Positions 12,666 to 28,669 of a DNA stretch of 64,000 bases are shown piece by piece. The stretch's first letter is position 1. Each line of letters begins with the position of its first letter. Source of the DNA: Nocardioides alkalitolerans DSM 16699. Lineage in GTDB: Bacteria; Actinomycetota; Actinomycetes; Propionibacteriales; Nocardioidaceae. A program made the translations under genes and the position numbers. The notes beneath the pieces were generated by a model that did no database searches, was not told the DNA's origin, and saw nothing but the letters and a program-made list of their open reading frames with translations. The stretch covers positions 62,001 to 126,000 of the forward strand of contig NZ_AUFN01000013.1 in NCBI RefSeq assembly GCF_000426525.1, given 5' to 3'.

Positions 12666-13085
12666 GTGCCCGACTCCCCGCTCACCCCCGACGCCCGCGC
12701 CATGCTGGCGAAGCCGAACCCCGCCGTCATCGCGACCGTGCGCCGCGACGGCCAGCCCGTCTCGGCGGCGACCTGGTACCTCCTGCGCAACGACGACCGC
12801 ATCCTCGTCAACATGGACGAGGGCCGGGTGCGCCTCAAGCACCTGCGCAACGACCCTCGCATCACGCTCACCGCGATCGACGAGGCGAACTGGTACACCC
12901 ACGTGACCGTCATCGGCCGCGTCGTCGAGATCTACGACGACCCCGACCTGGTCGACATCGACGCGCTCTCCCGCCACTACGGCGGCAAGCCCTACCCCCG
13001 CCGCGACCGCCTCCGCGTCAGCGCCCTCATCGAGGTCGACCGCGTGCATGGCTGGGGCGAGCAGAAGAACAACGACCAGGCCTAG
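12666..13085 (+). CDS. PPOX-class flavin/F420-dependent split-barrel protein
   Basis: This 139-residue split beta-barrel protein begins with the family pattern NPAVIATVRRDGQPVSA and has the WYLLRNDDRILVNMDEGR strand-loop that binds a flavin or F420. The usual Rv1155-like arrangement RLKHLRNDPRITL follows near residue 58. The physiological substrate of such proteins is generally unknown. GTG 12666 is the only well-placed start. Its TAG stop shares the CTAG at 13082-13085 with the stop of the convergent P-type ATPase, so the two genes overlap by 4 bp tail to tail. Confidence 0.87.
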   Translation: MPDSPLTPDARAMLAKPNPAVIATVRRDGQPVSAATWYLLRNDDRILVNMDEGRVRLKHLRNDPRITLTAIDEANWYTHVTVIGRVVEIYDDPDLVDIDALSRHYGGKPYPRRDRLRVSALIEVDRVHGWGEQKNNDQA

Positions 13086-15256
13086 GCGTCGGCCCTCGCC
13101 GGCTCCAGCCGGTAGCGCGTGGTCCGGCTCGAGTTCGCCACGACGGCGATCGAGGACGCGTTGTGGAGCAGTGCGGCCACGACCGGCGACAGGGCCCCGC
13201 CGGCGCTGACGACCAGCCCGACCGAGTTCACCGCGATCGACATGCCGTAGTTCTGGCGGATCACGCGGACGGCCTGGCGCGAGAGGTCGCGCAGCTCGAG
13301 CAACCGGTGGAGGTCGTCCCCGGCGAGAGCGATCTGGGCGGTCTCGAGGGCGACGTCGGTGCCGCCGACACCCATCGCGATGCCCACGTCGGCCAGCGCC
13401 AGCGCCGGCGCGTCGTTCGTGCCGTCGCCGACCATGGCGACCGTGTGGCCCGCGGCCTGCAGCGCGGCGACGACGTCCTGCTTCTCCTCGGGCATCACCT
13501 GGGCCCGCCACTCGTCGATGCCGAGCTCGGCGGCGACGGCGGCGGCCGTGAGCGGGTGGTCGCCGGTGAGCATGACGATGCGTCGTACGCCGTCGGCGCG
13601 CAGCGCCTCCACGACCTCGCGAGCCTCCGGACGCACGGTGTCGCGCAGGCTGACGAGCCCGGTCAGCACGCCGTCGACCGCCAGCAGCAGCGGCGTCTCG
13701 GCCTCCTGCTGCAGCTGCCGCACCCAGCCGGTCGCGACCTCGTCGACGGCGACGCCCTCGCGCTCGAGCAGGGGCAGGTTGCCGAGCAGGAGCGTCCGAC
13801 CGTCGGCGATGGTGCGCATCCCGAGGCCCAGCAGCACCTCGCACTCCTCGTGGGGAGGGATCGCGATGTGGCGCTCCTCGGTGGAGCGGATGACGGCCTG
13901 CGCCAACGGGTGCCGGGAGTGGATCTCCGAGCTGGCGACGTACGCGAGCACCTGCTCGGGCTCCCAGGCGTCGTCGAACGAGACCACGTTGGTGACGACG
14001 GGCCGGCCCACCGTCAGCGTGCCGGTCTTGTCGAAGACGAACGCGTCGACCTGGGCGGCGGCCTCCAGGTGGGAGCCGCCCTTCACCAGGATGCCGCGGC
14101 GCGCCCCGTTGCCGATCGCGGCGCTGATGGCCGTCGGGGTGGCGAGTCCGACCGCGCAGGGGCAGGCGACGAGCAGCATGGTCATCGCGCGTCGTACGTC
14201 GCGGGTGACCAGGAACGTCGCGGCGGCCAGGGCGAAGGACGCGGGCACGAAGCGGCGGGAGAAGTTCTCGCCGACGGTCTGGATGGGCGCGCGGTCGGTC
14301 TGCGCCTCCTCGACCCGGCTGATCACCCGCCCGATGGCGGTGTCGCGCCCGACCGCGGTGGCGCGCACGACCACACGGCCCTTCATCAGGACGCTGCCGG
14401 CGTGCACCCGCTGACCCAGCACGATCGCCACCGGCAGGGTCTCGCCGGTGATCGCGGACTGGTCGAGCACGCCGTCACCGTCGACCACGACGCCGTCCAC
14501 CGGCACGGCCACGTGCTCGTGCACGACGACCTCGTCGCCCACGGCGAGCCGGTCGATGTCGACGAGCTCCTCGGTCGTGACGCCGGCGGCGTCGGTGCGC
14601 CGTACCCACGCGTCGGCCTGCGTGCCGGTGAGCAGGTCGCGGATGGCGTGGCGCGTACGACGCAGCGTGAGGTCCTGGAGGTACTCGCCGATGTTGAGCA
14701 GCCAGAGCACCGTCAGGGCGACGATGTTCTCGCGCAGCAGCAGGCTCGCGACCGTGGCCGCCGAGACCAGCGCGTCGGTGCCGGCGGCGCGGCGACCGGC
14801 CAGGCCCCGCAGCGCGCCGCGCAGGAACGGGTAGCCGGTGAAGATCGTGACGCCGGTGGCGAAGGTGCGGCTGGTGGGGCCGAGCACCGGCGGGCGCCGC
14901 AGCACGTAGCGCCGTCCGCCCAGCAGCAGGAGCGCGAGGCCGCCGACCACCATGCGGGCGAGGTCGCCGTTCGAGACGTCGGCGGAACGCGGCAGCCGCG
15001 CGGGTACGGCGGACGCGGGCGTCGCCGTCGTGGCCGCACCGATGGCCGCCACGACGTCGTCGAGGTCGCAGCGCTCGGGCCGGAACCACACGACCACGGA
15101 GCCCGTGCGCGGGAACGCCTGCACGGCACGGACGCCCGCGACCCGGTCGACGGCCTCCTCGACCGCGACGGCGCGGCCCGAGGAGGCGAGCAGGTCGGGG
15201 ACCGCGTACCGCGCGCGACCCGCCTGGGCCGCCAGCGCCACCCGGGTGACGACCAC
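13082..15256 (-). CDS. ctpC: P1B-type metal ATPase, CtpC-like
   Basis: This 724-residue heavy-metal translocating P-type ATPase has the transport motif ACPCAVGLATPTAI, the phosphorylation site DKTGTL, the actuator TGET and the hinge GDGTNDAPAL. The N terminus (residues 1-90) looks like a degenerate metal-binding domain with no CxxC. Gene order matches mycobacterial Rv3269-ctpC, where CtpC and its partner PacL1 mediate zinc tolerance, so zinc export is the leading guess, with manganese also proposed for the family. GTG 15256 starts 4 bp after the partner's stop, implying coupled translation. A Fur/Zur-like box lies upstream of the pair. Confidence 0.9.
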   Translation of the reverse strand: MVVTRVALAAQAGRARYAVPDLLASSGRAVAVEEAVDRVAGVRAVQAFPRTGSVVVWFRPERCDLDDVVAAIGAATTATPASAVPARLPRSADVSNGDLARMVVGGLALLLLGGRRYVLRRPPVLGPTSRTFATGVTIFTGYPFLRGALRGLAGRRAAGTDALVSAATVASLLLRENIVALTVLWLLNIGEYLQDLTLRRTRHAIRDLLTGTQADAWVRRTDAAGVTTEELVDIDRLAVGDEVVVHEHVAVPVDGVVVDGDGVLDQSAITGETLPVAIVLGQRVHAGSVLMKGRVVVRATAVGRDTAIGRVISRVEEAQTDRAPIQTVGENFSRRFVPASFALAAATFLVTRDVRRAMTMLLVACPCAVGLATPTAISAAIGNGARRGILVKGGSHLEAAAQVDAFVFDKTGTLTVGRPVVTNVVSFDDAWEPEQVLAYVASSEIHSRHPLAQAVIRSTEERHIAIPPHEECEVLLGLGMRTIADGRTLLLGNLPLLEREGVAVDEVATGWVRQLQQEAETPLLLAVDGVLTGLVSLRDTVRPEAREVVEALRADGVRRIVMLTGDHPLTAAAVAAELGIDEWRAQVMPEEKQDVVAALQAAGHTVAMVGDGTNDAPALALADVGIAMGVGGTDVALETAQIALAGDDLHRLLELRDLSRQAVRVIRQNYGMSIAVNSVGLVVSAGGALSPVVAALLHNASSIAVVANSSRTTRYRLEPARADA

Positions 15257-15260
15257 GGGC

Positions 15261-15539
15261 TCAGTGCTCGTGGTCGTGAGCGGCGATGTCGGCGCCCGGC
15301 GGCGGCGCCTGCTCCCCCACGCGCTGGCGGGCGTCGGCCACGATGTCGCCGGTGGCGAGGCGCACGCGCTCGGCGCCGGCCTCGACACGGCGCTTGCCCC
15401 GCAGGCCGAGCGCGACCGTCGTCACCGCGCTCTCGCGGACGGCGCCGGTCTCGGCCGCCTTCTTGACCCCGTCCCACGCGACGGCGCCGACCAGGCCCGT
15501 GACGATGGTCGAGCCGGCCTTCGCGAACAGTCCGATCAC
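15261..15539 (-). CDS. DUF1490 protein, PacL-like P-ATPase partner
   Basis: This 92-residue protein has a hydrophobic N-terminal segment (VIGLFAKAGSTIVTGLVGAV), the conserved AWDGVKKAA and a C terminus rich in acidic and His residues, DIAAHDHEH. In mycobacteria PacL proteins anchor and stabilise the cognate P-ATPase and bind Zn2+ through such a C-terminal motif. I prefer GTG 15539, which has AGGAG about 8 bp upstream, over GTG 15554, which would place that ribosome-binding site inside the gene. It is directly upstream of the ctpC-like gene on the same strand. Confidence 0.87.
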   Translation of the reverse strand: MIGLFAKAGSTIVTGLVGAVAWDGVKKAAETGAVRESAVTTVALGLRGKRRVEAGAERVRLATGDIVADARQRVGEQAPPPGADIAAHDHEH

Positions 15540-15597
15540 CGGAGTTCTCCTCACTGGTCCACGGCCGCCGGGTGCGGCCGAGGGAGACGATAGACGA

Positions 15598-15612
15598 CGA
15601 CAATGATTCTCA
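15598..15612. promoter_or_regulatory. Fur/Zur-like box upstream of pacL-ctpC
   Basis: CGACAATGATTCTCA matches 13 of 15 bases of the box at 19873-19887. It lies 58 bp upstream of the DUF1490 start and 27 bp after the end of the MFS gene, so the likely target is the efflux pair. A zinc-uptake repressor box before an exporter would be unusual. Confidence 0.5.
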
Positions 15613-15638: not shown

Positions 15639-16904
15639 TCACTCCGCCCCGAAGGCCCGGTGCCGCAGGCCGGTGCCCGCTCCGGCGACGACGCTCAGCG
15701 CCAGGACGACGGCCGCACCGGCCATCGCGGCCCCCACGCCGACCGTCTCGGCCGCGGCCCCGCCCAGCACCGCACCGAACGGGGTGCCGCCCCAGGCGAT
15801 CATGCGGGCCGTCGTGTTCACCCGCGCCTGGAGGGGGTCCGGGGTGACCCGCTGCCGCGTGGCGATGCCGTTGAGCACCACGAGGGTGTGCGCGCCGGAC
15901 CAGGCCAGCAGCAGCACGAGCACGACGGGGTACGGCGCGGAGCCCGCGAGCCCGGCCACCGCCGGGACCCCGAGGGCGAGGCCGCCGAGCGTCAGCCACC
16001 CGGTCGGCACCCGGCGCGCGAGCCACGGGAGCGCGCTGGCCGCGAGGAACCCGCCCACGGCCACGACGGCGAGCATCACGCCGTACCGCTGCCCCTCCCC
16101 GACCGCGCCCGTGCCCGCCCCGTCCACCGCGAGCACGACGAGCAGCGCGGTGACGGCGCCCCCGGCGACCGAGTTGCCGACCCCGACGAGCGTGAGGTCC
16201 CGCACCACGGGCTGACGGAGCACGAACCGCAGGCCCTCCGCGACGTCGGCACGCAGGGTCGGCCGGGGGGACGGGCCCGCCCCGTCCCGCCCGACCGCCA
16301 GCGGACCCATCGGCGCCGTGACCACGAGCAGCAGCGCGGCCGCCGCGACGTACGCCGCGGCGTCGACCGCCAGCGCCGACGCCGACCCCAGCCACGCGAC
16401 CAGCAGGCCGCCGAGCGCGGGGGCGCCGATGCCGACGAGCGTGGTGCTCGTCCAGACCAGGCTGTTCGCGGCCACGATCCGCTCCCGGCCGACGATCGCC
16501 GGGAGCGCACCGAAGGCGGCCGCGTCGAACCACACGAACGCCGAGGCCACCACGAGCGCCACGACGAGGGCGTGCGTCGAGGTCAGGGCACCCGCGGCCT
16601 GGGCGAGCGGCACGCTGAGCAAGGCCGCCGCCGACGTCAGCTGCGCCGCGAGCATCACCCGGCGCCGGGGCCACCGGTCGGCCATGGCGCCGGCGAGCAG
16701 GCCGAGCACGAGGTACGGCGCGACCTGCGCCGCGGCGACGAGCGCGGCGACGAACGCCGAGCCCGAGAGCTGGAGCACCAGCAGGGGCATCGCGACCCCG
16801 GTCACCGCCGAGCCCGCCACCGCCACGACGCGCGCCGCCGCGAAGAGCAGCAGGTCGCGGTCGTGGAGCAGCGGGCGGGCGGCGACCGGGGGCGCAGTGC
16901 TCAC
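15639..16904 (-). CDS. MFS transporter, EntS-like
   Basis: This 421-residue protein has about twelve membrane segments and the MFS loop motif GAMADRWPRRRVMLAAQ near residue 74. Its plan (LLFAAARVVAVAGSAVTGVAMPLL at the N terminus and an NSLVWTSTTLVGIGAPALGG segment) matches the EntS/drug-exporter branch often found beside siderophore genes. It is the last gene of an operon with a FecCD-type importer and overlaps the binding-protein gene by 4 bp. Export of a metallophore is the simplest role, but no biosynthetic genes are nearby. Confidence 0.85.
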   Translation of the reverse strand: MSTAPPVAARPLLHDRDLLLFAAARVVAVAGSAVTGVAMPLLVLQLSGSAFVAALVAAAQVAPYLVLGLLAGAMADRWPRRRVMLAAQLTSAAALLSVPLAQAAGALTSTHALVVALVVASAFVWFDAAAFGALPAIVGRERIVAANSLVWTSTTLVGIGAPALGGLLVAWLGSASALAVDAAAYVAAAALLLVVTAPMGPLAVGRDGAGPSPRPTLRADVAEGLRFVLRQPVVRDLTLVGVGNSVAGGAVTALLVVLAVDGAGTGAVGEGQRYGVMLAVVAVGGFLAASALPWLARRVPTGWLTLGGLALGVPAVAGLAGSAPYPVVLVLLLAWSGAHTLVVLNGIATRQRVTPDPLQARVNTTARMIAWGGTPFGAVLGGAAAETVGVGAAMAGAAVVLALSVVAGAGTGLRHRAFGAE

Positions 16905-17956
16905 GGGTGCAGGCCCGCCGCGACGTCGCGCACGCCCTCGACGGCGGCCAGCGTGCCGGGCTGGATGAACGTGTTGTCGACGGCCACGAGACGTCCGTCC
17001 CGCACCGCCCTGCTCTCCGGGAACGTCGACGTCAGGTAGTCGATCGTCTCCTGCTCGTGCTCGGGGCTGTTGACGGCGAACACGAACGCCTCGGGGTCCT
17101 CCGCGAGCACGGCCTCGGGGCCGACCTCGGCGGCGAAGAAGTCGGCGAAGAGCCCGTCGCCGGAGTCCCAGACGTTCTCCCCGCCGGCGAGGCGCAGCAC
17201 GTCGACCTCGATGGCCCCGCCGATCGCGTAGACCTTGCCGGCCTCGACGTACACCTGCGCGGCCCGCACGGGCGCCTCGCCCTCGAAGGAGGCCGCCACC
17301 TCGGCGAGCGCGGCCCGCGCCTGCTCCTCCAGCTCGGCGGCCCGCTCCTCGACGCCGAAGACCTCGCCCAGGAAGGCGACGTCGGCGAACGCGTCCTCGA
17401 CGGTGCCGGCGGTCCGCCGGTCGGCGCAGCCCCCCGTGGCCACGTAGGTGACCGCGCCGAGGTCGGCCAGGTCGTCGTACCCCGCGAAGCCCATCTCGGT
17501 GTTGAACTCGTACTCCGTGCCGCTGAGCACGAGGTCGGGCGTCTGCGAGACCAGGGTCTCCTTGTCGGGCGGGCTGTCGCTGCTCAGCGACGGGATGGCG
17601 TCGACCTGCTCGGCGAGCTCGGGGCTCGGCTCGCCCAGGGCGTCCTGCGCCTGGGCGACGACGCGGTCGCCGACACCGAGCTGGATCAGCAGCTCGGTGA
17701 TGCTCGGGTGGAGGCTGACGACCCGCTGCGGCGCCGCGGGCACGCTGATCTCGCGCCCGCAGGTGGTGCCCGTGACGGGGTACGACGCGCCGTCGCCGTC
17801 CGCGGCGTCCTCCGCGCCCCCGGCGTCGGCCGGGGTGACGGTGCCGCAGCCCGTGGCCAGGAGGCCGACGGCCAGGACGGCCGCGAGGGCGGGGCCGGGG
17901 GTACGGCGCCGGCTCCGGGTCGACGTGGGAGTGGGGGTCGGGGTGCTGAGGGACAT
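16901..17956 (-). CDS. Metallophore ABC transporter substrate-binding lipoprotein
   Basis: This 351-residue lipoprotein has a Thr/Pro-rich start, a hydrophobic stretch and a lipobox with the lipidated cysteine at residue 37 (LLATGC). The mature part has the FepB/BtuF features VVSLHPSITELLIQLGVGDR and a single long helix linking two lobes. It should capture a siderophore, heme or corrinoid outside the membrane and deliver it to the permease encoded upstream. Fur/Zur-like boxes before the operon favour a metal chelate. AGGAG precedes ATG 17956. Confidence 0.88.
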   Translation of the reverse strand: MSLSTPTPTPTSTRSRRRTPGPALAAVLAVGLLATGCGTVTPADAGGAEDAADGDGASYPVTGTTCGREISVPAAPQRVVSLHPSITELLIQLGVGDRVVAQAQDALGEPSPELAEQVDAIPSLSSDSPPDKETLVSQTPDLVLSGTEYEFNTEMGFAGYDDLADLGAVTYVATGGCADRRTAGTVEDAFADVAFLGEVFGVEERAAELEEQARAALAEVAASFEGEAPVRAAQVYVEAGKVYAIGGAIEVDVLRLAGGENVWDSGDGLFADFFAAEVGPEAVLAEDPEAFVFAVNSPEHEQETIDYLTSTFPESRAVRDGRLVAVDNTFIQPGTLAAVEGVRDVAAGLHP

Positions 17957-17997
17957 GGTGCTCCTGCTTCTCGGGTGGTCGTGCCGGGTGGGTCGGG

Positions 17998-18782
<785 letters not shown>

Positions 18783-18786
<4 letters not shown>

Positions 18787-19865
18787 GCGACCCCACCCAC
18801 CGGCCGGCGGCGCAGCAGCCAGAGGAAGAACGGGGCACCGACGAGGGCGGTGACCACCCCGACGGGCAGCTCGCGCGGCGCGGCGGCGGTGCGGGCGAGC
18901 GTGTCGACCGCCACGAGCAGCAGGGCGCCGGCGAGCGCAGCGACGGGCAGGAGCCGGCGGTGGTCGGCGCCGACGAGGAGCCGGCAGACGTGCGGCACCA
19001 CCATGCCCACGAACCCGATGCCGCCCGCGACCGCGACCACGCTGCCGACGAGCAGCGACGTGACGAGGAGCGTCTCGATGCGGAACCGGGTGACGTCGAC
19101 CCCCAGCGAGGTCGCCGTCTCGTCGCCGGTCATGACGGCGTTGAGGTGGTCGGTGCGCAGCAGCGCGTACGCCGCGCCCAGGCCCAGCACCAGCGCCGGC
19201 AGGGGCAGCGTCGCCCAGTCGGCCGAGGAGATGCTGCCGAGGAGGAAGAACAGGATCCCCGGCAGCTTGCCGTGCTCGGCCGTCACGGTGATCCAGCTGG
19301 TGACGGCGCTGAAGAGGTAGGAGAGGGCGACCCCGGCGAGCACGAGCCGCAGCGACTCGATCCGGCCGCCGCGGGACGCCAGCAGGTAGACGAGCAGTCC
19401 GGCGAGCACGGCCCCGGCGAAGGCCGACCCCGAGACGAGGAGGCCGGGCACGCTCGCGCCGAGCACCAGGCCGATGACGGCCCCGAGGGCGGCGCCCGAC
19501 GAGGCGCCCAGCACGTACGGGTCCGCCAGCGGGTTGCGGATGACCGCCTGCAGGATCACGCCCACGATCGCCAGGGCCGCCCCCACCACCGCGGCCAGGA
19601 GCACCCGTGGGGTCCGGAACGACCAGACGATGCGGTCCTCGACGAGGGTCCAGGTCGCGACGTGCTCGCCCGGCAGCAGGTGGGCCGCCAGGATGCGCAG
19701 CGTCGTGCCGGGCCCCACCCCGGTGGAGCCGATGCCGATACTCGCGACGACGGCCACCAGCAGGGCGACCACCAGGCCCGCCACGACGAGGACGAACCGG
19801 GGGTGGGTACGGCGGACGGCGGCGGGACGGGCCGGGCTGCCGGGAGGTCGAGGGGATCGGATCAC
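18783..19865 (-). CDS. FecCD-family metallophore permease
   Basis: This 360-residue permease has about ten membrane segments and family motifs FRTPRVLLAAVVGAALAIVG near residue 89, NPLADPYVLGASSGAALGA near 130 and GGIGFVGMVVPHVCRLLVG near 285. It is a full-length FecCD/BtuC-type subunit that should work as a homodimer because only one permease gene is present. It is the first gene of the four-gene minus-strand operon (permease, ATPase, binding protein, MFS). Its GTG start lies only 8 bp from the Fur/Zur-like box at 19873-19887. Confidence 0.93.
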
Positions 19866-19872
19866 GGCTGAA

Positions 19873-19887
19873 TGATAATGATTCTCA
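19873..19887. promoter_or_regulatory. Fur/Zur-family operator, box 1
   Basis: TGATAATGATTCTCA fits the 15-bp palindromic frame TGANAATNATTNTCA of actinobacterial Zur boxes and also looks like a half-length Fur box. It stands between the two divergent metal-transport operons, next to the FecCD start. Confidence 0.65.
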
Positions 19888-19925
19888 TCTTGATGTCGAG
19901 CGGATCCGTCGAATTGCCCTACGAA

Positions 19926-19940
19926 TGAGACTCGTTATCA
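19926..19940. promoter_or_regulatory. Fur/Zur-family operator, box 2
   Basis: TGAGACTCGTTATCA, read on the other strand as TGATAACGAGTCTCA, differs from box 1 by two bases. It ends 9 bp before the GTG of the Opp-type ATPase gene. The two boxes are 53 bp apart in opposite orientation, one per divergent operon. Confidence 0.6.
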
Positions 19941-19949
19941 TTTCCGCTC

Positions 19950-20741
19950 GTGACCTCTCCCCCGTCCGACCTCCCACCGGCGCTCGCCGCCCGCGGCCTG
20001 ACCGTGCGCGTCGGCGGCACGGTGCTGGTCGATGGCCTCGACCTCGACCTGGCTCCGGGTGAGCGGGTCGCGCTGCTGGGCGCGTCGGGGTCGGGCAAGT
20101 CGGTCACGGCGGCGGCCCTCACCGGGTCGCTGCCGCCCGGCCTGGTCGTCACCGGCTCGCTGGTCGTGGGCGGCGAGGTCGTCGTCCCGGCCCCCGGGCG
20201 CCGCCGTTCCGCCCCGCGGACGGCGCTCGTGCCCCAGGACTCGCTCTTCGCCCTCAACCCGCTGGTGCCCGTGGGCCGCCAGCTCACCCGCCCCTGGCGA
20301 CGCCGCGGGCTCGACGCGCACACCGCCCGCTCCCGGGCCGCCGCGTCGCTGGTGTCCGTCGGGTTCACGGACGCGGAGGCCGTGCTGCGCCGCTTGCCCG
20401 CCGAGCTCTCCGGCGGCCAGCGGCAGCGGGTCTGCATCGCGATGGCGGCCGCGTGCGACGTACCGGTGCTCGTCGCCGACGAGCCCACCACCGCCCTCGA
20501 CACGGTCACCCAGCGCCAGGTGCTCGACGCCCTGCGCACGGTCCCCGCGGCACTGCTGCTCATCACCCACGACGTCGCCGTCGCGGCCGAGCTCTGCGCC
20601 CGCGTGCTCGTCGTGCACCGCGGCCTCCTCGTCGACGACCTCGCCACCGACGCCCTGCTGGCCGGTGCCGGCGGGCCCGAGACCCGACGCCTGGTCGGCG
20701 CTGTCGCGGACCCGTCGGCCCCCCGGACGGGCGCCGCGTGA
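19950..20741 (+). CDS. Opp/Nik-type ABC ATPase, DppD-like
   Basis: This 263-residue ATPase of the peptide/nickel uptake class has Walker A GASGSGKS near residue 48, signature LSGGQRQRV near 152 and Walker B VLVADEPTTALD. It lacks the C-terminal 4Fe-4S cysteine set and oligopeptide-transporter tail found in many DppD proteins. It is the first of five genes (two ATPases, MFS, binding protein, fused permease) and starts 9 bp after Fur/Zur-like box 2. Together with the second ATPase it should form a heterodimer driving import. Confidence 0.9.
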   Translation: MTSPPSDLPPALAARGLTVRVGGTVLVDGLDLDLAPGERVALLGASGSGKSVTAAALTGSLPPGLVVTGSLVVGGEVVVPAPGRRRSAPRTALVPQDSLFALNPLVPVGRQLTRPWRRRGLDAHTARSRAAASLVSVGFTDAEAVLRRLPAELSGGQRQRVCIAMAAACDVPVLVADEPTTALDTVTQRQVLDALRTVPAALLLITHDVAVAAELCARVLVVHRGLLVDDLATDALLAGAGGPETRRLVGAVADPSAPRTGAA

Positions 20742-21505
20742 GCGCCGCCGAGCTCCGGGCCGCCCGCGTGAGCGCGCGCCCGCGCGGCGCCCACCGGGAC
20801 GTGCTCGTCGACGTCGACCTCGCCGTCGCGGCGGGCACCACCGTGGGCCTGGTCGGGCGGTCGGGCGCGGGCAAGTCCACGCTCGTCCGGCTCCTCCTGG
20901 GCCTGGAGCAGCCCTCGTCCGGCGCGGTCACCTGGCAGGACGCGCACCTGCCCACCCGGCGCGCCGACCGGCGCGGGTTCCGGCGGGCCGTGCAGTACGT
21001 GCCGCAGGACCCCCTCGGCAGCCTCGACCCCCGCCACGACGTCGATCACCTCGTCCGCGAGCCGTTGCGCTGCCTGGGCGTCGCCGGCGACCACCGGCAG
21101 CGCGTGGCGGCGGCGCTGGCCGCGGTCGATCTCGACCCCTCCCTGGGGCGCCGCCGGCCGCGCGAGCTCTCCGGCGGTCAGGCCCAGCGGGTCGCCGTCG
21201 CCCGGGCGCTGGCCACCGGGCCCTCGCTGCTCGTGGCCGACGAGCCGCTCAGCGCCGTCGACCGTCCGCTGCGCGACGAGCTGGTCGACCTGCTCTCCCG
21301 GTTGCACCACGAGCGCGGCCTCGGCCTCCTGCTGGTCTCCCACGACCTCGGCGCCGTGGCCCGGCTGTGCGGCACGACGGTGGTGCTCGACGCCGGACGC
21401 GCCGTCGAGAGCGGCGCCACCGACCAGCTCCTGCACGAGCCCCGACACCCGGCCACCCGCGCCCTGGTCGAGGCGGCCCCGCGGCTCGATGGTCGAGCCG
21501 CGTGA
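20738..21505 (+). CDS. Opp/Nik-type ABC ATPase, DppF-like
   Basis: This 255-residue ATPase starts at GTG 20738, overlapping the previous stop as GTGA. It has Walker A GRSGAGKST near residue 43, the family block YVPQDPLGSLDPRHDV near 88, signature LSGGQAQRV and Walker B LLVADEPLSAVD. The PQDP-x-SL-x-PR element is typical of DppF/OppF/NikE subunits. Overlap with both neighbours implies fixed stoichiometry with its partner ATPase and the MFS protein. Confidence 0.92.
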   Translation: MSAAELRAARVSARPRGAHRDVLVDVDLAVAAGTTVGLVGRSGAGKSTLVRLLLGLEQPSSGAVTWQDAHLPTRRADRRGFRRAVQYVPQDPLGSLDPRHDVDHLVREPLRCLGVAGDHRQRVAAALAAVDLDPSLGRRRPRELSGGQAQRVAVARALATGPSLLVADEPLSAVDRPLRDELVDLLSRLHHERGLGLLLVSHDLGAVARLCGTTVVLDAGRAVESGATDQLLHEPRHPATRALVEAAPRLDGRAA

Positions 21506-22737
21506 GCGCTGCGCCCCGACCGGCGGTCCTCCTCGGCACCCAGCTCGTCTTCAACGTCGGCTTCTACGCCGTCGTCCCCTTCCTCGCCGTCGTGCTCCGC
21601 GACGACTACCTGCTGGGCGGCGCCGCCGTCGGCCTCGTGCTCGGCGTGCGCACGTTCGCCCAGCAGGGCCTCTTCCTGCTCGGCGGGATCCTCACCGACC
21701 TGCTCGGGGCGCGGCGTCTCATCCTGCTCGGCTGCGCCGTACGTGTCGCCGGCTTCGCGGCGCTCGCCCTGGCGCCCGGGCTGGGCGTGCTGGTGCTCGG
21801 TGCCGTGCTCACCGGGCTCGGCGGCGCGCTCTTCTCCCCCGCGGTCGAGACCCTGGTGGCCCGGGCCGAGGCGGCCCGACCGCCCGGGCCCGCGACCCGG
21901 TCGAGCCTGTTCGCACTGCTGGCGGTCGTGGGCGAGACGGGCGCCGTGCTGGGTCCGCTCCTGGGCGCGGCTCTGTTCGGCTGGGGCTTCACCACGGTCG
22001 CGCTCAGCGGCGCGGCCCTCTTCGCCTGCGTCGGCGTCGCCCTCGTCCGGTTGATCCCCGCGGGCACCGACGCCCCCTCGCACGCGTCCGCCCGCGCCCG
22101 GGCCGACGACCTGCGCTCCGGTCTGAGCCTGCGCCACCGCCGCTTCGTGGCCTTCGCGCTGCTGCACGCGGTCAACCTGCTCGCCTGGAACCAGCTCTAC
22201 CTCGGGCTGCCCGCCGAGCTGCAGCGGGTCGGTGCCGGTCCCGTGGCGCTCGGCGTGCTCCTCGCCGTTGTCTCCGCCGTCACCATCACCCTCCAGATCC
22301 CCGTCGCGCGCCTGGCCCGTCGCCTCGGGCCCCGTGTGGCCCTGCCCGCGGGCTACTGCCTCATCGCCGCGGGCTTCGCCGTGCTGGCCGTCGCCGCCCC
22401 GATGGCCCCGCCCGCCTGGTCGACCGCTCCGGCCCTCGGCGCAGCGGTGCTGCTCACCCTCGGCCACCTCACCGTCGGTCCGACCGCGCTCGACCTCGTT
22501 CCACGCTTCGCGGACGGCCGCCCGCTGGGGTCGTACTACGGCCTGCTCGCCACCTGCGGCGGCGTGGTCGTGCTGCTGCTCAGCGTGCCGCTCGGCGCCT
22601 GGTACGTCGCGGCCAGCACCCCCGGCCCGGGCGCCTCCTTGCCCTGGGCCGTCCTCACGGTCCTCCCCCTCTGCTCGGCCCTCGGCATGGCCGCCCTGCT
22701 CCGCCGCATGCCGACGCGCACCGCCGTACCCGCCTGA
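21502..22737 (+). CDS. MFS transporter within Opp/Nik-type operon
   Basis: This 411-residue protein has about twelve membrane segments, with the MFS loop GGILTDLLGARRLILLG near residue 53 and a matching second-half loop ARRLGPRVALPAGY. It starts at GTG 21502, overlapping the second ATPase. An MFS exporter inside an Opp-type metal importer operon recalls the cnt system for staphylopine, where CntE exports the metallophore and CntABCDF re-imports its metal complex. No CntKLM-like synthases occur in this window, so the analogy covers transport only. Confidence 0.87.
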   Translation: MSAAPRPAVLLGTQLVFNVGFYAVVPFLAVVLRDDYLLGGAAVGLVLGVRTFAQQGLFLLGGILTDLLGARRLILLGCAVRVAGFAALALAPGLGVLVLGAVLTGLGGALFSPAVETLVARAEAARPPGPATRSSLFALLAVVGETGAVLGPLLGAALFGWGFTTVALSGAALFACVGVALVRLIPAGTDAPSHASARARADDLRSGLSLRHRRFVAFALLHAVNLLAWNQLYLGLPAELQRVGAGPVALGVLLAVVSAVTITLQIPVARLARRLGPRVALPAGYCLIAAGFAVLAVAAPMAPPAWSTAPALGAAVLLTLGHLTVGPTALDLVPRFADGRPLGSYYGLLATCGGVVVLLLSVPLGAWYVAASTPGPGASLPWAVLTVLPLCSALGMAALLRRMPTRTAVPA

Positions 22738-22782
22738 CCCGCCCGACCCGCACCACGTCCCCCACCCGATCCAGGAGTGCCC

Positions 22783-24318
22783 GTGACCCACCCCCGTCCG
22801 TCCCCGTCCCCCCGCACCCGCCGGCACCTGCTCGCCGGCGTCTCCGCGCTGGTGCTGGCGTCGACCACCGCCTGCGTCGGCGGCGGCGCCGACAGCACCG
22901 ACGCCGCGGACCGCATCGACCTCGCCATGCTGCAGCCGCCCCGCTCCGGGATGTCGCCGCTCAGCGACGACGCGTTCAAGCTGGCCCGCTGGAGCACCGC
23001 CGAGACGCTGGTGCGCCTCGACGCGGACGGCAACGCCGAGCCCTTCCTGGCCACCGCCTGGGAGCAGGTCGAGCCGACCGTGTGGCAGGTCGACGTGCGC
23101 GAGGGCGTGCAGTTCCACGACGGCAGCGCGCTCGACGCCGCCGCGGTCGTCGGCTCGCTGGAGGCGGCGACCGAGGCCTCCCCTGTGCCGCGCATCCTCG
23201 ACGGCGTCGACCTGACGGTGAGCGAGGTCGACGCCGACACCGTCGAGATCCGCACCGCCACGGCCGACCCCCTGCTGCCCCAGCGGCTCTCGAGCCCCCA
23301 GCTGTCGGTGCTCTCCCCCGCGGCCTACGGCGAGGGGTCCGTCGACCCGGTCGGCACCGGGACCGGGCCGTTCGAGCTCGTCGACGTCGACGGCACCGCC
23401 GGCGCTACCCTCGACCGCTTCGACGACTACTGGGGAGAGACGGCCGCGGCGGCCGGCATCGACGTCTCCTTCGTGCCCGACGGCACGGCCCGCGCGGCCG
23501 CGCTGCGCACGGGCGAGGCCGACGTCGTGGAGGCGATCCCGGTCGGCCAGGCGGGCCTGCTCGACCCCGAGCTGGTGCACGAGGTGCCGATGCCGCGCAC
23601 CAACACGCTCTACCTGAACACCGCCGAGGGACCCTTCGCCGACCCGGCCGTCCGTGCCGCGGCCCGGGCGGCGATCGACCGGGCCCGCCTGGTCGCCGAC
23701 GTCTACGAGGGGCGCGCCGACGAGGCCGCGGGGCTGCTGGGCCCCGCGCTGCCCTGGGCGGCCGACCTGCGCGGCGACCCGTCGTACACGGCGCTCGTCG
23801 CGGAGCAGGCGACGCCGGCCGAGGTCGACGGCGCCCGCATCACGCTCGGCACCTTCACGGACCGCTCCGAGCTGCCCGAGGTGGCGGTGCTGATCGAGCA
23901 GTCCCTCGAGGCGGCGGGCTTCGTCGTGGAGCAGGACGTCCGGGAGTACCAGTTCATCGAGGCCGACGCGCTCGACGGCGCGTTCGACGCCTTCATCCTG
24001 TCGCGGGCGACGGTGCTCGACTCCGGCGACCCGGTCGCCTACCTCTACAGCGACTTCGCCTGCGAGGGCTCGTTCAACCTCTCGCAGTTCTGCGACCCCG
24101 CGGTCGACGCGGCGATCGAGGCCGCGGCCGCCGAGCCCGCGGGCCCGGGCCGGCAGGCGGCGATCATGCGCGCCGAGGCCGAGATCCTCGCCCGTGACGC
24201 CGCCGTGCCGCTCCTGCACGAGCGCGTCATCCAGGGCGAGGCGGCCGGCGCCGGCGAGATCGCCCGCGACCCCCGGGAGCGCGAGCTGATCGGCGTCGCG
24301 AGCACGCCCGGTGACTGA
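22783..24318 (+). CDS. Opp/Nik-type substrate-binding lipoprotein
   Basis: This 511-residue SBP_bac_5 protein has an RTRRHLLAG signal start and a lipobox cysteine at residue 31 (STTAC). The mature part shows the DppA/NikA plan, with WQVDVREGVQFHDGSALDA near residue 100, a GTGPFELVDVD segment near 198 and LYLNTAEGPFADPAVR near 275. AGGAG at 22773-22777 selects GTG 22783 over GTG 22777, which lies in the ribosome-binding site. Ligands of the family are peptides, nickel, opines or metallophores; the operators upstream favour a metal chelate. It overlaps the permease gene by 8 bp. Confidence 0.9.
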   Translation: MTHPRPSPSPRTRRHLLAGVSALVLASTTACVGGGADSTDAADRIDLAMLQPPRSGMSPLSDDAFKLARWSTAETLVRLDADGNAEPFLATAWEQVEPTVWQVDVREGVQFHDGSALDAAAVVGSLEAATEASPVPRILDGVDLTVSEVDADTVEIRTATADPLLPQRLSSPQLSVLSPAAYGEGSVDPVGTGTGPFELVDVDGTAGATLDRFDDYWGETAAAAGIDVSFVPDGTARAAALRTGEADVVEAIPVGQAGLLDPELVHEVPMPRTNTLYLNTAEGPFADPAVRAAARAAIDRARLVADVYEGRADEAAGLLGPALPWAADLRGDPSYTALVAEQATPAEVDGARITLGTFTDRSELPEVAVLIEQSLEAAGFVVEQDVREYQFIEADALDGAFDAFILSRATVLDSGDPVAYLYSDFACEGSFNLSQFCDPAVDAAIEAAAAEPAGPGRQAAIMRAEAEILARDAAVPLLHERVIQGEAAGAGEIARDPRERELIGVASTPGD

Positions 24319-26176
24319 GCGGGCCCTCGCACGGGTCCCGGTGGTCGCGCTCTCCCGGGCCCTGGCCGTCGCGCTCCTCCTCGGCCTGGTCGGGGCCCTG
24401 CCGTGGCTCTCGGACCGCGACCCCGCCTACACGATCCTGCGGGCCCGGTACGCCGACCGCGAGGCCACCCCGGAGGCGCTGGCCGCCGTACGCACCGACC
24501 TCGGCCTGGAGGGCGGTCCCCTCGGGGCGCTGCGCGTCTGGCTCGGCGGGCTGCTGCGGGGCGACCTCGGCACCTCGTGGGTGAGCGGCAACCCGGTCGG
24601 TCCCGGCACGTTCTCGGCCCTCGGCGTCTCCCTGACGTTGATGGGGTTCGCGCTGCTCGTCGCGGGGGTCGTGGCCGCGCTCGTGGTGCTGCCGGCGCTG
24701 CGGCGCGGGCTGCGGGGTCGGCCCTCCCGGGGCGCCGGGGCGGGGGCGGCGACCCTCACGGCGCTGCCCGAGTTCCTGCTCGCGGTGGTGCTCCTGCTGG
24801 TCGGCGCCGTGTGGCTGGGCTGGTTCCCGCCGTACGGCTGGGACGGCCTGCGCCACGTCGTGCTGCCCGCCCTCGCGCTGGGGTTGCCGGCCGGCGGCCT
24901 GCTCGGCCGCCTGCTGGCCACCGCCGTCGCCGCCACGTTCTCCGAGCGCTGGGTGACGACGTGGCGCCTGGCGGGGTACGGCGAGCGCGAGGTCGCGGTC
25001 GCCGTCCTGCGCCGCACGCTGCCCTCCGTCGTCGACCAGGTCGGCCTCGTCGTCGTCGGCCTCACCGGCGGCGCCGTCGCCGTCGAGGAGGTCTTCGCGA
25101 TCCCCGGCCTGGGCCGTGCGACCCTCGGCGCCGCGGCGGCGCAGGACCTGCCGGCCCTGCAGGCGGGGGTGCTCGTCCTGGTCGGCCTCGCGCTCCTGGT
25201 CGGCGGGCTGGCCGCGCTCGGACGTCGGCTGCTGCTCGGCCGGGCGGCCCGTCTCGGCAGCCTGCCGCTGCCCGACCCGGTCCTCGTGCGACGCCGCCGG
25301 GACCTGGTGCTGCCGCTCACGTGCGCCGCCCTGCTCCTGCTCCTCCTGCTCACCGGGCTGCCCCGCGACCCGTACGCCGCCACCCACGACCGCCTCGCCG
25401 CCCCCGGGCCCGACCTGCCCCTCGGCGCCGACGCCAGCGGCCGCGACCTGCTCGCCCGCGTGGGCCACGGTGCGCTCGCCACCGTGGGCACGGCGCTCGC
25501 CGTCGTCGCGGTCTGCCTCCTCGTCGGTGTGGCGCTGGGCTGCCTCACCCGGGCCAGCACCGGGCTGGTCGAGGTCGCCAACGCGACGCCGCCCGTGCTG
25601 GCCGGGCTCGTCGTGGCCGCCGCGTCGGGCCCGTCCCTGACCGGTGCCGCCGTGGCGGTCGCCGCCGTCGGCTGGGCCCCGCTCGCCGCCCACACGGCGG
25701 CCCTCGTCGACGAGGCCCGGGCGCAGCCGCACATCGCGGTGCTGCCCGTGCTCGGGGTGGGCCGCGCCCGTCGCCTCACGCACTACGTGCTGCCGGCGGT
25801 CGTGCCGGCCGTCGCCCGGCACGCCCTGCTGCGCCTCCCCGGAACCGCCCTCGCCCTCGCCGCTCTGGGGTTCCTCGGTCTCGGCTCGCGGCCACCGTCG
25901 CCGGAGTGGGGCCTCGTGCTCTCCGAGGGCGCCGCCTACATCGAGCGTGCGCCCTGGGCCGTGCTCGCCCCGACGACGGCGCTCGTGCTCGTCGCCGTCC
26001 TGGCGGTGTCGTTGTCGGGGTACGGCGGACGGGGGTCGCGACCGGAGCCCGGCTACCGTCGGGACCGTGCCCGAGGGAGACAGCGTCCGCCTGGTCGCAC
26101 GCCGACTGGACCGGTCGCTGCAGGGACGCACGGTGGCCCGGAGCGACCTGCGGGTGCCGCGGCTCGCGACGCGTGA
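24311..26176 (+). CDS. Fused Opp/Nik-type permease (DppB-DppC in one chain)
   Basis: This 621-residue protein holds two complete BPD permease domains that are normally separate. Residues 1-320 match the DppB type, including VEEVFAIPGLGRATLGAAAA near 257. Residues 330-570 match the DppC type, with LPLGADASGRDLLARV near 372 and PGTALALAALGFLGLGSRPP near 513. The usual EAA loops are present as GYGEREVAVAVLRRTLP and GVGRARRLTHYVLP. The first domain's start is short compared with DppB. The last 45 residues are Arg/Pro-rich and overlap the nei gene by 110 bp, so they may be a non-functional read-through tail. Confidence 0.87.
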   Translation: MTERALARVPVVALSRALAVALLLGLVGALPWLSDRDPAYTILRARYADREATPEALAAVRTDLGLEGGPLGALRVWLGGLLRGDLGTSWVSGNPVGPGTFSALGVSLTLMGFALLVAGVVAALVVLPALRRGLRGRPSRGAGAGAATLTALPEFLLAVVLLLVGAVWLGWFPPYGWDGLRHVVLPALALGLPAGGLLGRLLATAVAATFSERWVTTWRLAGYGEREVAVAVLRRTLPSVVDQVGLVVVGLTGGAVAVEEVFAIPGLGRATLGAAAAQDLPALQAGVLVLVGLALLVGGLAALGRRLLLGRAARLGSLPLPDPVLVRRRRDLVLPLTCAALLLLLLLTGLPRDPYAATHDRLAAPGPDLPLGADASGRDLLARVGHGALATVGTALAVVAVCLLVGVALGCLTRASTGLVEVANATPPVLAGLVVAAASGPSLTGAAVAVAAVGWAPLAAHTAALVDEARAQPHIAVLPVLGVGRARRLTHYVLPAVVPAVARHALLRLPGTALALAALGFLGLGSRPPSPEWGLVLSEGAAYIERAPWAVLAPTTALVLVAVLAVSLSGYGGRGSRPEPGYRRDRARGRQRPPGRTPTGPVAAGTHGGPERPAGAAARDA

Positions 26177-26945
26177 CCTCACCGGGCGCACCGTGCTCGA
26201 GCACGCGACCCACGGCAAGCACCTGCTCACGCGCTTCTCCGGCGCCGTGACCCTCCACTCCCACCTGCGGATGGACGGCAGCTGGACCGTGACGGGCGCC
26301 GGCAAGCGCCTCCCGCGGCGACTGATGCACGAGGTGCGGGTCGTGCTGGAGACGACGGAGGGCGCGACCGCGTGGGGCCTGCTGCTGCACGACCTCGCCC
26401 TGGTGCCGACCTCCGAGGAGCACACGCTCGTCGGTCACCTCGGTCCCGACCCGCTGCGCGACGACTGGGACGCCGACGAGGCGGTACGGCGCCTGCTCGC
26501 CCGGCCCGGGACGCCCCTGGTCTCGGCGCTCCTCGACCAGACCCGCATGGCCGGGCTCGGCAACCTGTGGGCGAACGAGCTGGCGTTCGTCGTCGGGCGC
26601 AGCCCGTGGACCCCGGTCGGCGAGCTCGACGTGCCGCGCCTCGTGGCGCGGGCCGCGACCGCGCTGCGGCACTCCGCCTCGGTGCCCGGCGCCTACCAGG
26701 TCACCACCGGGGTCAGCCGTCGCGGCGAGGACCACTGGGTGGCGGGTCGCGCCCGCAAGCCCTGCCTGCGCTGCGGGACGACGGTGCTGATGATGCCCGA
26801 GCTGCCGAACGACCCGGCCCACCGACGTACCTGGTGGTGCCCCCGCTGCCAGCCCGGGCCGGGCCCCGAGACGCGCGTGCCCTCGGTCGTCGACCGACCC
26901 CGCGGCGGGCCCGACCAGGCGGACCCGGTCAGGCCGAGCGGCTGA
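26067..26945 (+). CDS. nei: Endonuclease VIII-like DNA glycosylase
   Basis: This 292-residue Fpg/Nei glycosylase-lyase removes oxidised bases. After the initiator it reads PEGDSV, giving the catalytic Pro2 and Glu3; the HGKHLL lysine lies near residue 51, the helix-two-turn-helix is MAGLGNLWANELAF near 161, and the zinc finger has CLRC near 232 and CPRC near 258. The GTG at 26067 is fixed by the need for Pro2-Glu3. It overlaps the fused permease tail by 110 bp and the convergent arsC-like gene by 17 bp. Confidence 0.95.
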   Translation: MPEGDSVRLVARRLDRSLQGRTVARSDLRVPRLATRDLTGRTVLEHATHGKHLLTRFSGAVTLHSHLRMDGSWTVTGAGKRLPRRLMHEVRVVLETTEGATAWGLLLHDLALVPTSEEHTLVGHLGPDPLRDDWDADEAVRRLLARPGTPLVSALLDQTRMAGLGNLWANELAFVVGRSPWTPVGELDVPRLVARAATALRHSASVPGAYQVTTGVSRRGEDHWVAGRARKPCLRCGTTVLMMPELPNDPAHRRTWWCPRCQPGPGPETRVPSVVDRPRGGPDQADPVRPSG

Positions 26946-27399
26946 CCAGCGACGGCGGCAGCTCGATGCCGGGGACGAGCTCGACGAGCAGGTCGCGCAC
27001 GCGGGTGTCGATGTCGGCGACCACGCGTCGTACGACGGTCTCGTCCTGGCCCTTGGGATCCTCGAGCGGCCAGTCGCGGTAGCGGGCTCCCGGGACGTAC
27101 GGGCAGTTCTCGCCGCAGCCCTGGGTGATCGCCAGGTCGCTCGCCGCGATCATCTCGGAGGTGAGCAGCTTCGGGGACTCGCGGGAGGTGTCCAGGCCCA
27201 GGGACTCCAGGACCCGGGCGACCTCGGGGTGGACGTGCTCACCGGGCTCGGTGCCGGCCGAGATCGCGACCACCCGGCCCCCTGCGTAGTGCTCGGTGAG
27301 CAGCCGCGAGGCGACCGAGCGGCCCCCGTTGGCGCGGCAGGCGAAGACCACGACCGGGGTGTGGCCATGGTCGGTGGTGGCGGCTGCGGTGCTGGTCAT
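26929..27399 (-). CDS. arsC: Arsenate reductase, low-molecular-weight phosphatase type
   Basis: This 156-residue protein has the phosphatase loop C-x5-R at residues 21-27 (CRANGGRS), the acid-loop DWPLEDP near residue 110 and two further cysteines in GCGENCPY near 94-98 that can serve thiol relay. It should reduce arsenate to arsenite, the substrate of the adjacent Acr3. Whether thioredoxin or mycothiol/mycoredoxin is the reductant cannot be told from sequence. It follows acr3 by 63 bp on the same strand and ends inside the convergent nei gene. Confidence 0.88.
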   Translation of the reverse strand: MTSTAAATTDHGHTPVVVFACRANGGRSVASRLLTEHYAGGRVVAISAGTEPGEHVHPEVARVLESLGLDTSRESPKLLTSEMIAASDLAITQGCGENCPYVPGARYRDWPLEDPKGQDETVVRRVVADIDTRVRDLLVELVPGIELPPSLVSRSA

Positions 27400-27462
27400 G
27401 CGGGGCTCCTGGGATGTCGGGCTCGGGGATGCGGGAGGGGCGGTCAGGTGGAGGTGCGGAGG

Positions 27463-28587
27463 TCAGGCGGCGTGGCGCCCGGCGGTGCCGTCCGTCCGGC
27501 GCTCGGCGCCGCGGTCGCGCAGCCACAGCGCGACGTACACGAGCCCGACCAGCACCGGCACCTCGATCAGCGGGCCGACGACGCCGGCCAGGGCCTGGCC
27601 CGAGGTCACGCCGAAGGTGCCGATCGCCACGGCGATGGCGAGCTCGAAGTTGTTGCCCGCCGCGGTGAACGCCAGCGTCGACGTCTTCGCGTAGCCCAGC
27701 CCCAGCCGCGAGCCGGTGAACCACGACACGGAGAACATCAGCACGAAGTAGGCGAGCAGCGGGAGCGCGATCCGGGCGACGTCCCAGGGCTGGGAGGTGA
27801 TGGCGTCGCCCTGGAGCGCGAACAGCATCACGATGGTGAACAGCAGGCCGTAGAGGGCGACCGGGCCGATCTTCGGCAGGAAGGTCCCCTCGTACCACTC
27901 CCGGCCCCTCGCCCGCTCCCCGACGTACCGCGTCAGGAACCCCGCGACCAGCGGGACGCCGAGGAAGATGAGCACGCTCAGCGCGATCGCCCCCACCGAG
28001 AACTCGGCCGAGGTGGTCTCCAGACCGAGCCAGTCCGGCAGCGTCTGGAGGTAGAACCACCCGAGCGCCGCGAACGCCACGATCTGGAAGACCGAGTTGA
28101 GGGCGACCAGCACCGCGGCGGCCTCGCGGTCGCCGCACGCGAGGTCGTTCCAGATGAGCACCATCGCGATGCAGCGGGCGAGGCCGACGATGATGAGGCC
28201 GGTGCGGTACTCCGGGAGGTCCGGGAGCAGCAGCCACGCCAGCGCGAACATCAGCGCGGGCCCGACGAGCCAGTTCAGCACCAGCGACGAGACCAGCAGC
28301 CTGCGGTCGGAGGTGACGCGGGAGGTCTCGGTGTAGCGGACCTTGGCCAGCACCGGGTACATCATCAGCAGCAGGCCGACGGCGATCGGCAGCGAGACGC
28401 CGCCGATCTCGACGGCCTCCAGGGCGTCGTCGAGGCCGGAGAACGAGCGGCCGAGCACGAGCCCGAGCACCATGGCGGCGATGATCCAGACCGGTAGGAA
28501 CCGGTCGAGCAGCGAGAGCTGCCGCATCACGGGCTCCGCGGAGGGTGGTGCGGGCGGGTCGGTCTGCTCGGTCTGCTGCCTGGCCAC
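27463..28587 (-). CDS. acr3: Arsenite efflux transporter, ACR3 family
   Basis: This 374-residue permease has about ten membrane segments and the hallmark GLARCIAMVLIWNDLACGD near residue 135, with the conserved arsenite-binding cysteine, plus TAAGNNFELAIAVAIG near 310. The family exports arsenite as an antiporter. It heads an acr3-arsC operon transcribed away from arsR, and the 82-bp space between them should contain the promoter. A 60-residue N-terminal region up to the first membrane helix is usual. Confidence 0.95.
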   Translation of the reverse strand: MARQQTEQTDPPAPPSAEPVMRQLSLLDRFLPVWIIAAMVLGLVLGRSFSGLDDALEAVEIGGVSLPIAVGLLLMMYPVLAKVRYTETSRVTSDRRLLVSSLVLNWLVGPALMFALAWLLLPDLPEYRTGLIIVGLARCIAMVLIWNDLACGDREAAAVLVALNSVFQIVAFAALGWFYLQTLPDWLGLETTSAEFSVGAIALSVLIFLGVPLVAGFLTRYVGERARGREWYEGTFLPKIGPVALYGLLFTIVMLFALQGDAITSQPWDVARIALPLLAYFVLMFSVSWFTGSRLGLGYAKTSTLAFTAAGNNFELAIAVAIGTFGVTSGQALAGVVGPLIEVPVLVGLVYVALWLRDRGAERRTDGTAGRHAA

Positions 28588-28605
28588 GGCGGGATCTCCT
28601 GCTGC

Positions 28606-28621: not shown

Positions 28622-28669
28622 CCAGGAGTGAGACTTGCCGACTGTTTCGACGTCTGTCAACTTAGACCC

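What the first reader, a model, noticed from the sequence alone, without database searches (positions are those of the whole stretch)
15639..26176. Candidate metallophore shuttle: two divergent importers, each with an MFS exporter
A FecCD-type importer plus MFS protein and an Opp/Nik-type importer plus MFS protein face each other across two Fur/Zur-like boxes. Opp importer with MFS exporter recalls the staphylopine cnt system and zincophore loci, but no synthase for a metallophore lies in the window. The set could recover chelates made elsewhere in the genome or by neighbours.
Basis: partly seen in the sequence, partly recalled or inferred. Interest (0 to 1): 0.7.

Follow-up and report, generated by a model that had tools for sequence, protein, structure and literature searches.

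The report
Zinc-starvation island with two chelate importers
This stretch holds two back-to-back uptake systems, each with a membrane transporter of a type that usually exports, whose start sites carry the switch sequence this bacterium uses for zinc starvation; since no known zinc-scavenger synthesis gene was found in its genome, it probably takes up zinc bound to molecules made by other organisms.

Summary
A FecCD-type importer plus MFS protein and a Nik/Opp-type importer plus MFS protein are transcribed away from each other over an 84-bp gap holding two palindromic boxes. A third box precedes the next operon, pacL-ctpC (zinc efflux). The boxes are Zur boxes: the genome's other good sites precede znuABC-zur, aztD, and a ribosomal L28/S14 set with a divergent CobW-type GTPase. 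In relatives the Opp operon is Zur-boxed in 41 of 56 actinobacterial loci (0.5 expected) and, with a different Zur motif, in 14 of 15 proteobacterial loci (0 expected); a sister clade has DtxR-like boxes. FecCD-operon orthologues are Zur-boxed in 6 of 20 (0.12 expected), and some sit in or beside azole-RiPP (SagD/SagB) clusters. The genome lacks detectable CntM, NAS/CntL, NRPS condensation, YcaO and DUF364 proteins, and no good Zur box leads to a synthase. Best reading: a zinc-starvation island importing zinc chelates, probably made by others, with MFS proteins that may re-export ligand and an efflux pump as possible safety valve. Metal, ligand and MFS direction are not shown.

The parts
18783..19865 (-). 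FecCD-type permease
   Evidence: PF01032 E=1.3e-93; nearest NCBIfam TIGR03869, below its cut-off
17998..18786 (-). FecE-like ATPase of the same importer
   Evidence: PF00005; nearest NCBIfam TIGR03873, below its cut-off
16901..17956 (-). FecB-like substrate-binding lipoprotein
   Evidence: PF01497; orthologues 40-48% identical in other families
15639..16904 (-). MFS1, EntS/2A0121-like MFS protein
   Evidence: TIGR00900 and EntS model matches below cut-off; orthologue in the same gene order in L163-L166
19873..19887 (.). Zur box for the FecCD operon, TGATAATGATTCTCA
   Evidence: exact to TGANAATNATTNTCA
19926..19940 (.). Zur box for the Opp operon, TGAGACTCGTTATCA
   Evidence: 2 mismatches, next to the NikD start
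19950..20741 (+). NikD-like ATPase
   Evidence: TIGR02770 best match, below its cut-off
20738..21505 (+). NikE-like ATPase
   Evidence: NikE models best matches, below cut-off
21502..22737 (+). MFS2, MdtH-like MFS protein
   Evidence: PF07690 E=5e-29, MdtH model below cut-off; homologues inside related operons
22777..24318 (+). NikA/OppA-type substrate-binding lipoprotein
   Evidence: PF00496 E=2.5e-57; model pLDDT 90, nearest solved folds include NikA proteins
24311..26176 (+). fused NikB+NikC-type permease
   Evidence: NikB-type models match residues 18-298 and NikC-type models 349-574; fusion shared by relatives
15598..15612 (.). third Zur box, before pacL-ctpC
   Evidence: 1 mismatch
15261..15539 (-). 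pacL, DUF1490 metal-binding partner protein (open frame extends to 15554)
   Evidence: PF07371 E=1.1e-29; start site from a GAGGAG ribosome-binding site
13082..15256 (-). ctpC-like P1B-type metal-efflux ATPase (open frame extends to 15388; start chosen by inference)
   Evidence: TIGR01525 above cut-off; CPC and HN motifs visible in the sequence, as in CtpC

Best explanation
The region is a Zur-controlled zinc-starvation island. When zinc is low, Zur leaves the two boxes between the operons and both are transcribed. The NikA-type binding protein with a fused NikBC permease and NikDE ATPases, and the FecB-FecCD-FecE system, each import a zinc chelate. The ligand is probably made by other organisms, because no known zincophore synthase was found in this genome and no good Zur box leads to one. 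The MFS proteins most likely export ligand, for recycling after zinc release or as remnants of producer loci. The same box before pacL-ctpC suggests that Zur also sets zinc efflux, by activation at high zinc or by repression. Shown in silico: genes, box identity, the genome-wide set of good boxes, conservation in relatives. Inferred: operon structure, metal, ligand class, ligand source, MFS direction, sign of the pacL box.
For: Three boxes in 64 kb against 0.02 expected. The other good sites in the genome precede znuA-znuC-znuB-zur, the L28/S14 set with a divergent MRF-type GTPase, and aztD. Orthologous Opp operons carry a Zur box in 41 of 56 actinobacterial loci, 0.52 expected over all 71 loci, and a different, gamma-type Zur box in 14 of 15 proteobacterial loci, 0 expected, 0 of 57 actinobacterial controls. 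FecCD-operon orthologues carry a box in 6 of 20, 0.12 expected. A sister clade has DtxR-like boxes. Solved-structure neighbours of the binding protein include NikA metal-chelate binders. Synthase families absent. Precedents: Zur-regulated NikA/OppA-like importers in C. diphtheriae; Zur activation of the zinc exporter zitB; PacL1-CtpC zinc efflux.
Against: No expression or binding data. The ligand is unknown and family-5 proteins also bind peptides, opines and glutathione. A non-producer keeping two MFS proteins is odd. Unrecognised synthases cannot be excluded: PALP, LAL-type ATP-grasp, NIS and EDDS genes were not searched in the own genome, and PF10100 rang in no control genome.
Confidence: 0.7

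Rival explanations
1. The strain makes its own zincophore by a pathway not recognised here, and the two MFS proteins are its exporters.
For: MFS proteins next to importers are typical of producers; in Lentzea an MFS2-like gene follows ATP-grasp, DUF364 and PALP genes behind a Zur-type box; MFS1 orthologues adjoin azole-RiPP genes.
Against: No DUF364, YcaO, NRPS condensation, NAS or CntM protein in the genome; all good Zur boxes lead to other zinc genes.
Confidence: 0.2
2. The importers take up simple zinc complexes with environmental ligands (histidine, citrate, small peptides) rather than dedicated zincophores.
For: Nearest solved structures include NikA, one of them in complex with nickel, L-histidine and a thiazolidine dicarboxylate; the proteobacterial loci checked show no MFS2 gene or candidate synthase beside the importer.
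Against: Orthologues of both importers lie beside candidate biosynthetic genes in other genomes; two importers with MFS proteins exceed what simple complexes need.
Confidence: 0.25
3. Ordinary peptide and iron-siderophore importers, with boxes by chance or read by another Fur-family regulator.
For: Family names alone suggest peptide or iron; the genome has three Fur-family genes; a sister clade of the Opp binding protein has DtxR-like boxes.
Against: Box statistics and the identity of the other boxed genes.
Confidence: 0.05

Closest known systems
Staphylopine system CntABCDF-CntE-CntKLM and actinobacterial opine-zincophore clusters (PMC7438024)
   Same: Opp-type importer with MFS protein under metal control; in actinobacterial CntM clusters a FecCD importer, or both FecCD and Opp importers, occur together
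   Different: no CntM or NAS/CntL protein found in the genome; permease fused; Cnt models far below cut-off; MFS proteins not matched by a Cnt exporter model
Zur-regulated NikA/OppA-like importers dip2162-2165 and dip2125-2128 of Corynebacterium diphtheriae (PMC6711530)
   Same: zinc- and Zur-regulated NikA/OppA-like ABC importer in an actinobacterium, ligand unknown
   Different: two separate permease genes there, one fused protein here; one of those loci is divergent from NRPS/PKS genes; no FecCD or MFS partner described in the passage read
NikABCDE nickel importer
   Same: family-5 binding protein, permease pair, NikD/E ATPases, similar fold
   Different: fused permease, Zur boxes, every Nik model below its cut-off
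'F420-0 ABC transporter' models TIGR03868/03869/03873
   Same: best NCBIfam matches of the three FecCD-importer genes
   Different: all three below cut-off; Zur box and zinc context instead
PacL1-CtpC zinc efflux of M. tuberculosis (PMC9374683)
   Same: DUF1490 protein with a P1B ATPase gene
   Different: here the pair carries a Zur-type box and lies directly behind a zinc-starvation operon

Membership tests
Zur regulon of this genome | palindromic Zur box near the promoter, shared with established Zur targets | tested here: met
Zur regulon of this genome | a zur gene in the genome | tested here: met
   Fur-family gene in the znu operon; assigned as Zur by location, the NCBIfam Zur model itself scored weakly
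Zur regulon of this genome | Zur binding and zinc-dependent expression | not testable with these tools
   needs EMSA/ChIP and RT-qPCR
Staphylopine/opine zincophore system (Cnt) | CntM opine dehydrogenase (PF10100) | tested here: inconclusive
   no hit in own genome, but the family rang in no control genome; 0 of 397 phylum genomes over cut-off
Staphylopine/opine zincophore system (Cnt) | CntL / nicotianamine-synthase-like enzyme (PF03059) | tested here: not met
   no hit, control positive
Staphylopine/opine zincophore system (Cnt) | CntA, CntC, CntD and CntF importer models above cut-off | tested here: not met
   CntA 56 of 800 bits, CntC 54 of 440, CntD 127 of 380, CntF 129 of 385
NikABCDE nickel importer | Nik equivalog models above cut-off | tested here: not met
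   NikA 95 of 393 bits, NikD 159 of 319, NikE 215 of 333
F420-0 ABC transporter | TIGR03868/03869/03873 above cut-off | tested here: not met
   109.7 of 392.4, 284.1 of 437.35, 296.7 of 372.4 bits
PacL-CtpC zinc efflux pair | DUF1490 protein encoded with a heavy-metal P1B ATPase | tested here: met
   PF07371 and TIGR01525
PacL-CtpC zinc efflux pair | zinc specificity | not testable with these tools
   the ATPase family also exports other metals
EDDS (aes) zincophore system | aes synthesis genes in the genome | not tested

The most novel reading that the evidence does not exclude
The FecCD half is a receiver for a zinc-binding azole/azoline RiPP (a Zur-controlled TOMM zincophore) made by other actinomycetes. 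Orthologues of FecCD-FecE-FecB-MFS1 form operons with two SagD-type YcaO cyclodehydratases, a leader-binding-like protein and a CocE hydrolase (L163, L166; L165 adds SagB), and in other families similar gene clusters carry Zur-type boxes in their promoter regions. The window's strain has the receptor and MFS protein but no YcaO, so it would use a zincophore class not found in the literature searched.
Probability: 0.2. Interest if true: 0.85.

Novelty: new variant of a known kind. Interest (0 to 1): 0.62.

Why it matters
It defines, by regulation rather than by name, a zinc-linked Opp importer family with a fused permease that apparently crossed between phyla and stands under each host's own Zur motif, with a sister clade that appears switched to the iron regulator. 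It makes uptake of foreign zincophores by a non-producing soil actinomycete directly testable in one strain, and points to two candidate zincophore pathways (ATP-grasp/DUF364/PALP and azole-RiPP) that can be tested through their Zur-type boxes.

Tried and rejected
Peptide or iron importer with chance boxes: rejected on box statistics. Staphylopine membership: importer models and the NAS test not met. One jointly evolved two-importer shuttle: weakened, because no fetched Opp relative is flanked by this FecCD operon and no fetched FecCD relative by this Opp operon; L151 has a different Opp-type set nearby. Two genome-search runs with the permease failed (18, 21) and counted against the cap. A viral-contig search gave no relatives. 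EDDS gene literature was not found in the library. Weak 2-mismatch genome sites: one precedes aztD; one lies at the start of an EamA/RhtA-like gene and matches on one side only, so is probably chance; two have no clear target.

Full report
What is there. Nine genes lie in two divergent sets separated by 84 bp. Leftward: FecCD permease, ATPase, FecB-like lipoprotein, MFS1. Rightward: NikD-like, NikE-like, MFS2, NikA/OppA-type lipoprotein, and a single protein in which the NikB and NikC permease halves are fused. MFS1 is nearest to the 2A0121/EntS group, MFS2 to MdtH. Directly behind MFS1, on the same strand, lie pacL (DUF1490) and a CtpC-like P1B ATPase. On the other side a formamidopyrimidine-type DNA glycosylase gene and arsenic genes follow.

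The boxes are Zur boxes. TGANAATNATTNTCA matches (<=2 mismatches) occur three times in 64 kb, against 0.02 expected: just before the FecCD start codon, just before the NikD start codon, and about 60 bp before the likely pacL start codon. A genome-wide scan (the reversed control pattern gave one hit) found other good sites before znuA-znuC-znuB-zur on contig C2, and between a ribosomal L28/S14 set and a divergent MRF-type CobW GTPase on C9. A weaker site lies at the start of aztD, the zinc metallochaperone, whose model is above its cut-off. These are zinc-starvation genes of the kind Zur controls (PMC6103462). A Fur-family gene ends the znu operon.

The Opp half belongs to a family with a fused permease. 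A scan of genome contigs with the permease alignment returned 80 loci, most of them this family, in Streptomyces, Lentzea, Saccharothrix, Nocardiopsis, Modestobacter, Rhodococcus, Nocardioides, Actinoplanes, Jonesia and others, and in Halomonas, Kushneria, Aureimonas, Cereibacter, Tatumella, Chimaeribacter and Symbiopectobacterium. Binding protein and fused permease are adjacent in the family loci; NikDE and sometimes MFS2 lie nearby. A Zur box lies upstream in 41 of 56 actinobacterial loci; the other 15 of the 71 loci scanned are proteobacterial and none carries this motif; 0.52 hits were expected over all 71. Instead 14 of those 15 carry the gamma-type Zur box TGTTATANNATAACA at -29 to -52, with 0 expected from the rest of the loci and 0 of 57 actinobacterial loci having it. 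That motif is recalled from general knowledge of proteobacterial Zur, not tested here. In a tree of the binding protein the Proteobacteria fall inside a starred, partly actinobacterial set that includes the window, which suggests transfer between phyla; the tree is a quick one and the proteobacterial branch itself is only moderately supported. A separate, fully supported clade (L068, L072, L074 copy, L077 copy, L078, L115) lacks Zur boxes and has DtxR-like boxes near the start, 4-7 mismatches from the consensus. Metal regulators of three motif types recurring before one importer family is the strongest argument that it carries metal chelates.

Ligand clues for the Opp half. In Lentzea (L081, L082) a Zur-type box (2 mismatches) lies before an ATP-grasp gene followed by DUF364, PALP and MFS2-like genes, divergent from a methyltransferase and the binding protein-permease pair; parts of the set recur in L063 and in Streptomyces marokkonensis L057. 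In S. himastatinicus L066 the operon sits among a Fur-family gene, CobW proteins and ribosomal paralogues (read from sequence). These look like candidate zincophore loci; their products are unknown. The AlphaFold model (pLDDT 90) has the family-5 fold; NikA structures, one with a nickel-histidine-containing complex, are among the nearest, with peptide, opine and glutathione binders close behind, so the fold does not name the ligand.

The FecCD half is independent. Its binding protein has orthologues in other actinobacterial families (20 loci fetched). Six of 20 have a Zur-type box at the permease start, 0.12 expected. In L163-L166 the order FecCD-FecE-FecB-MFS1 is as in the window. In L163 and L166 it forms one run of genes with a leader-binding-like protein (weak TIGR03882), a CocE hydrolase and two SagD-type YcaO proteins (TIGR03604); L165 has the set in another arrangement plus SagB (TIGR03605), and L164 has a YcaO gene and the leader-binding-like gene nearby. 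Family matches were run on L164, L165 (SagB), L166 and L147 members; the others are assigned by homology or by reading. In L147, L154, L155, L157, L160 and L161 the FecCD genes lie near YcaO-type, peptidase or leader-binding-like genes, and boxes occur in the promoter regions of that set in L154 (exact), L161 (1 mismatch), L155, L157 and L160 (2 mismatches). No paper found in the library joined YcaO or azole RiPPs with Zur or zinc uptake. The window's system branches between the two groups on a long branch.

No synthase found. The own genome (16 contigs, rated 100% complete) is negative for PF10100, PF03059, PF00668, PF04016 and PF02624. PF10100 rang in no control genome, so that negative is weaker. 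No good Zur box leads to a synthase. The Opp binding protein has no close match in 24 congeners, and the FecB protein none in the congeners sampled, so both sets look acquired or patchily kept.

How it probably works. Under zinc starvation Zur releases both promoters; two importers bring in zinc chelates; the MFS proteins export ligand or are kept from producer loci; zinc then restores repression. The box before pacL-ctpC suggests that Zur also sets efflux. Precedents are Zur activation of zitB in S. coelicolor (PMC5472717) and zinc-induced pacL1-ctpC in M. tuberculosis (PMC9374683). Metal identity, ligand, MFS direction and the sign of the pacL box are inference.

Comparison. A survey of CntM loci (PMC7438024) reports that actinobacterial opine-zincophore clusters carry FecCD importers (14 of 24) or both Opp and FecCD (10 of 24), the combination seen here without the synthase. 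C. diphtheriae has Zur-regulated NikA/OppA-like importers of unknown substrate (PMC6711530). The window's system works like these but is not a member of the Cnt family by the tests made. It is a new variant of a known kind: Zur-controlled chelate import without a recognised producer pathway, with a fused permease.

Noticed in passing
L163, L165, L166 (with L164), and L147, L154, L155, L157, L160, L161: FecCD-FecE-FecB orthologues, in L163-L166 with MFS1, lie in or beside azole-RiPP-type clusters (SagD-type YcaO, SagB, leader-binding-like protein, peptidase or CocE hydrolase); Zur-type boxes occur in the promoter regions of five of the second group. Candidate Zur-controlled RiPP zincophores.
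   Followed up: partly
L081:2100-8400, L082 same region, L057:2400-4800, L063:17700-21700: ATP-grasp, DUF364 and PALP genes with an MFS2-like gene, behind a Zur-type box in L081 and L082, beside or near the Zur-boxed binding protein-permease pair: a second candidate zincophore pathway.
   Followed up: partly
L068, L072, L074:8342-9913, L077:8375-9889, L078, L115: A clade of the same Opp binding protein lacks Zur boxes and has DtxR/IdeR-like boxes near the start, suggesting a switch from zinc to iron control.
   Followed up: partly
window 13082-15612: A Zur-type box directly precedes a zinc-efflux type operon (pacL-ctpC); whether Zur activates or represses it is open.
   Followed up: partly
L083, L100 (Symbiopectobacterium): In these insect-symbiont genomes tblastn hits to the permease are split over different frames or overlapping pieces, suggesting a decaying gene.
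   Followed up: no
L148, L149, L151-L153, L156, L158, L159, L161: ABC-exporter-type proteins (ABC_membrane plus ATPase; confirmed for L148 and L151) accompany the FecCD-FecE-FecB genes instead of MFS1; they could be IrtAB-like importers or exporters.
   Followed up: no
window 26929-29053: Arsenic resistance set next to the island: arsenate-reductase/phosphatase-like protein, Acr3 efflux, and an ArsR-like regulator by sequence.
   Followed up: no
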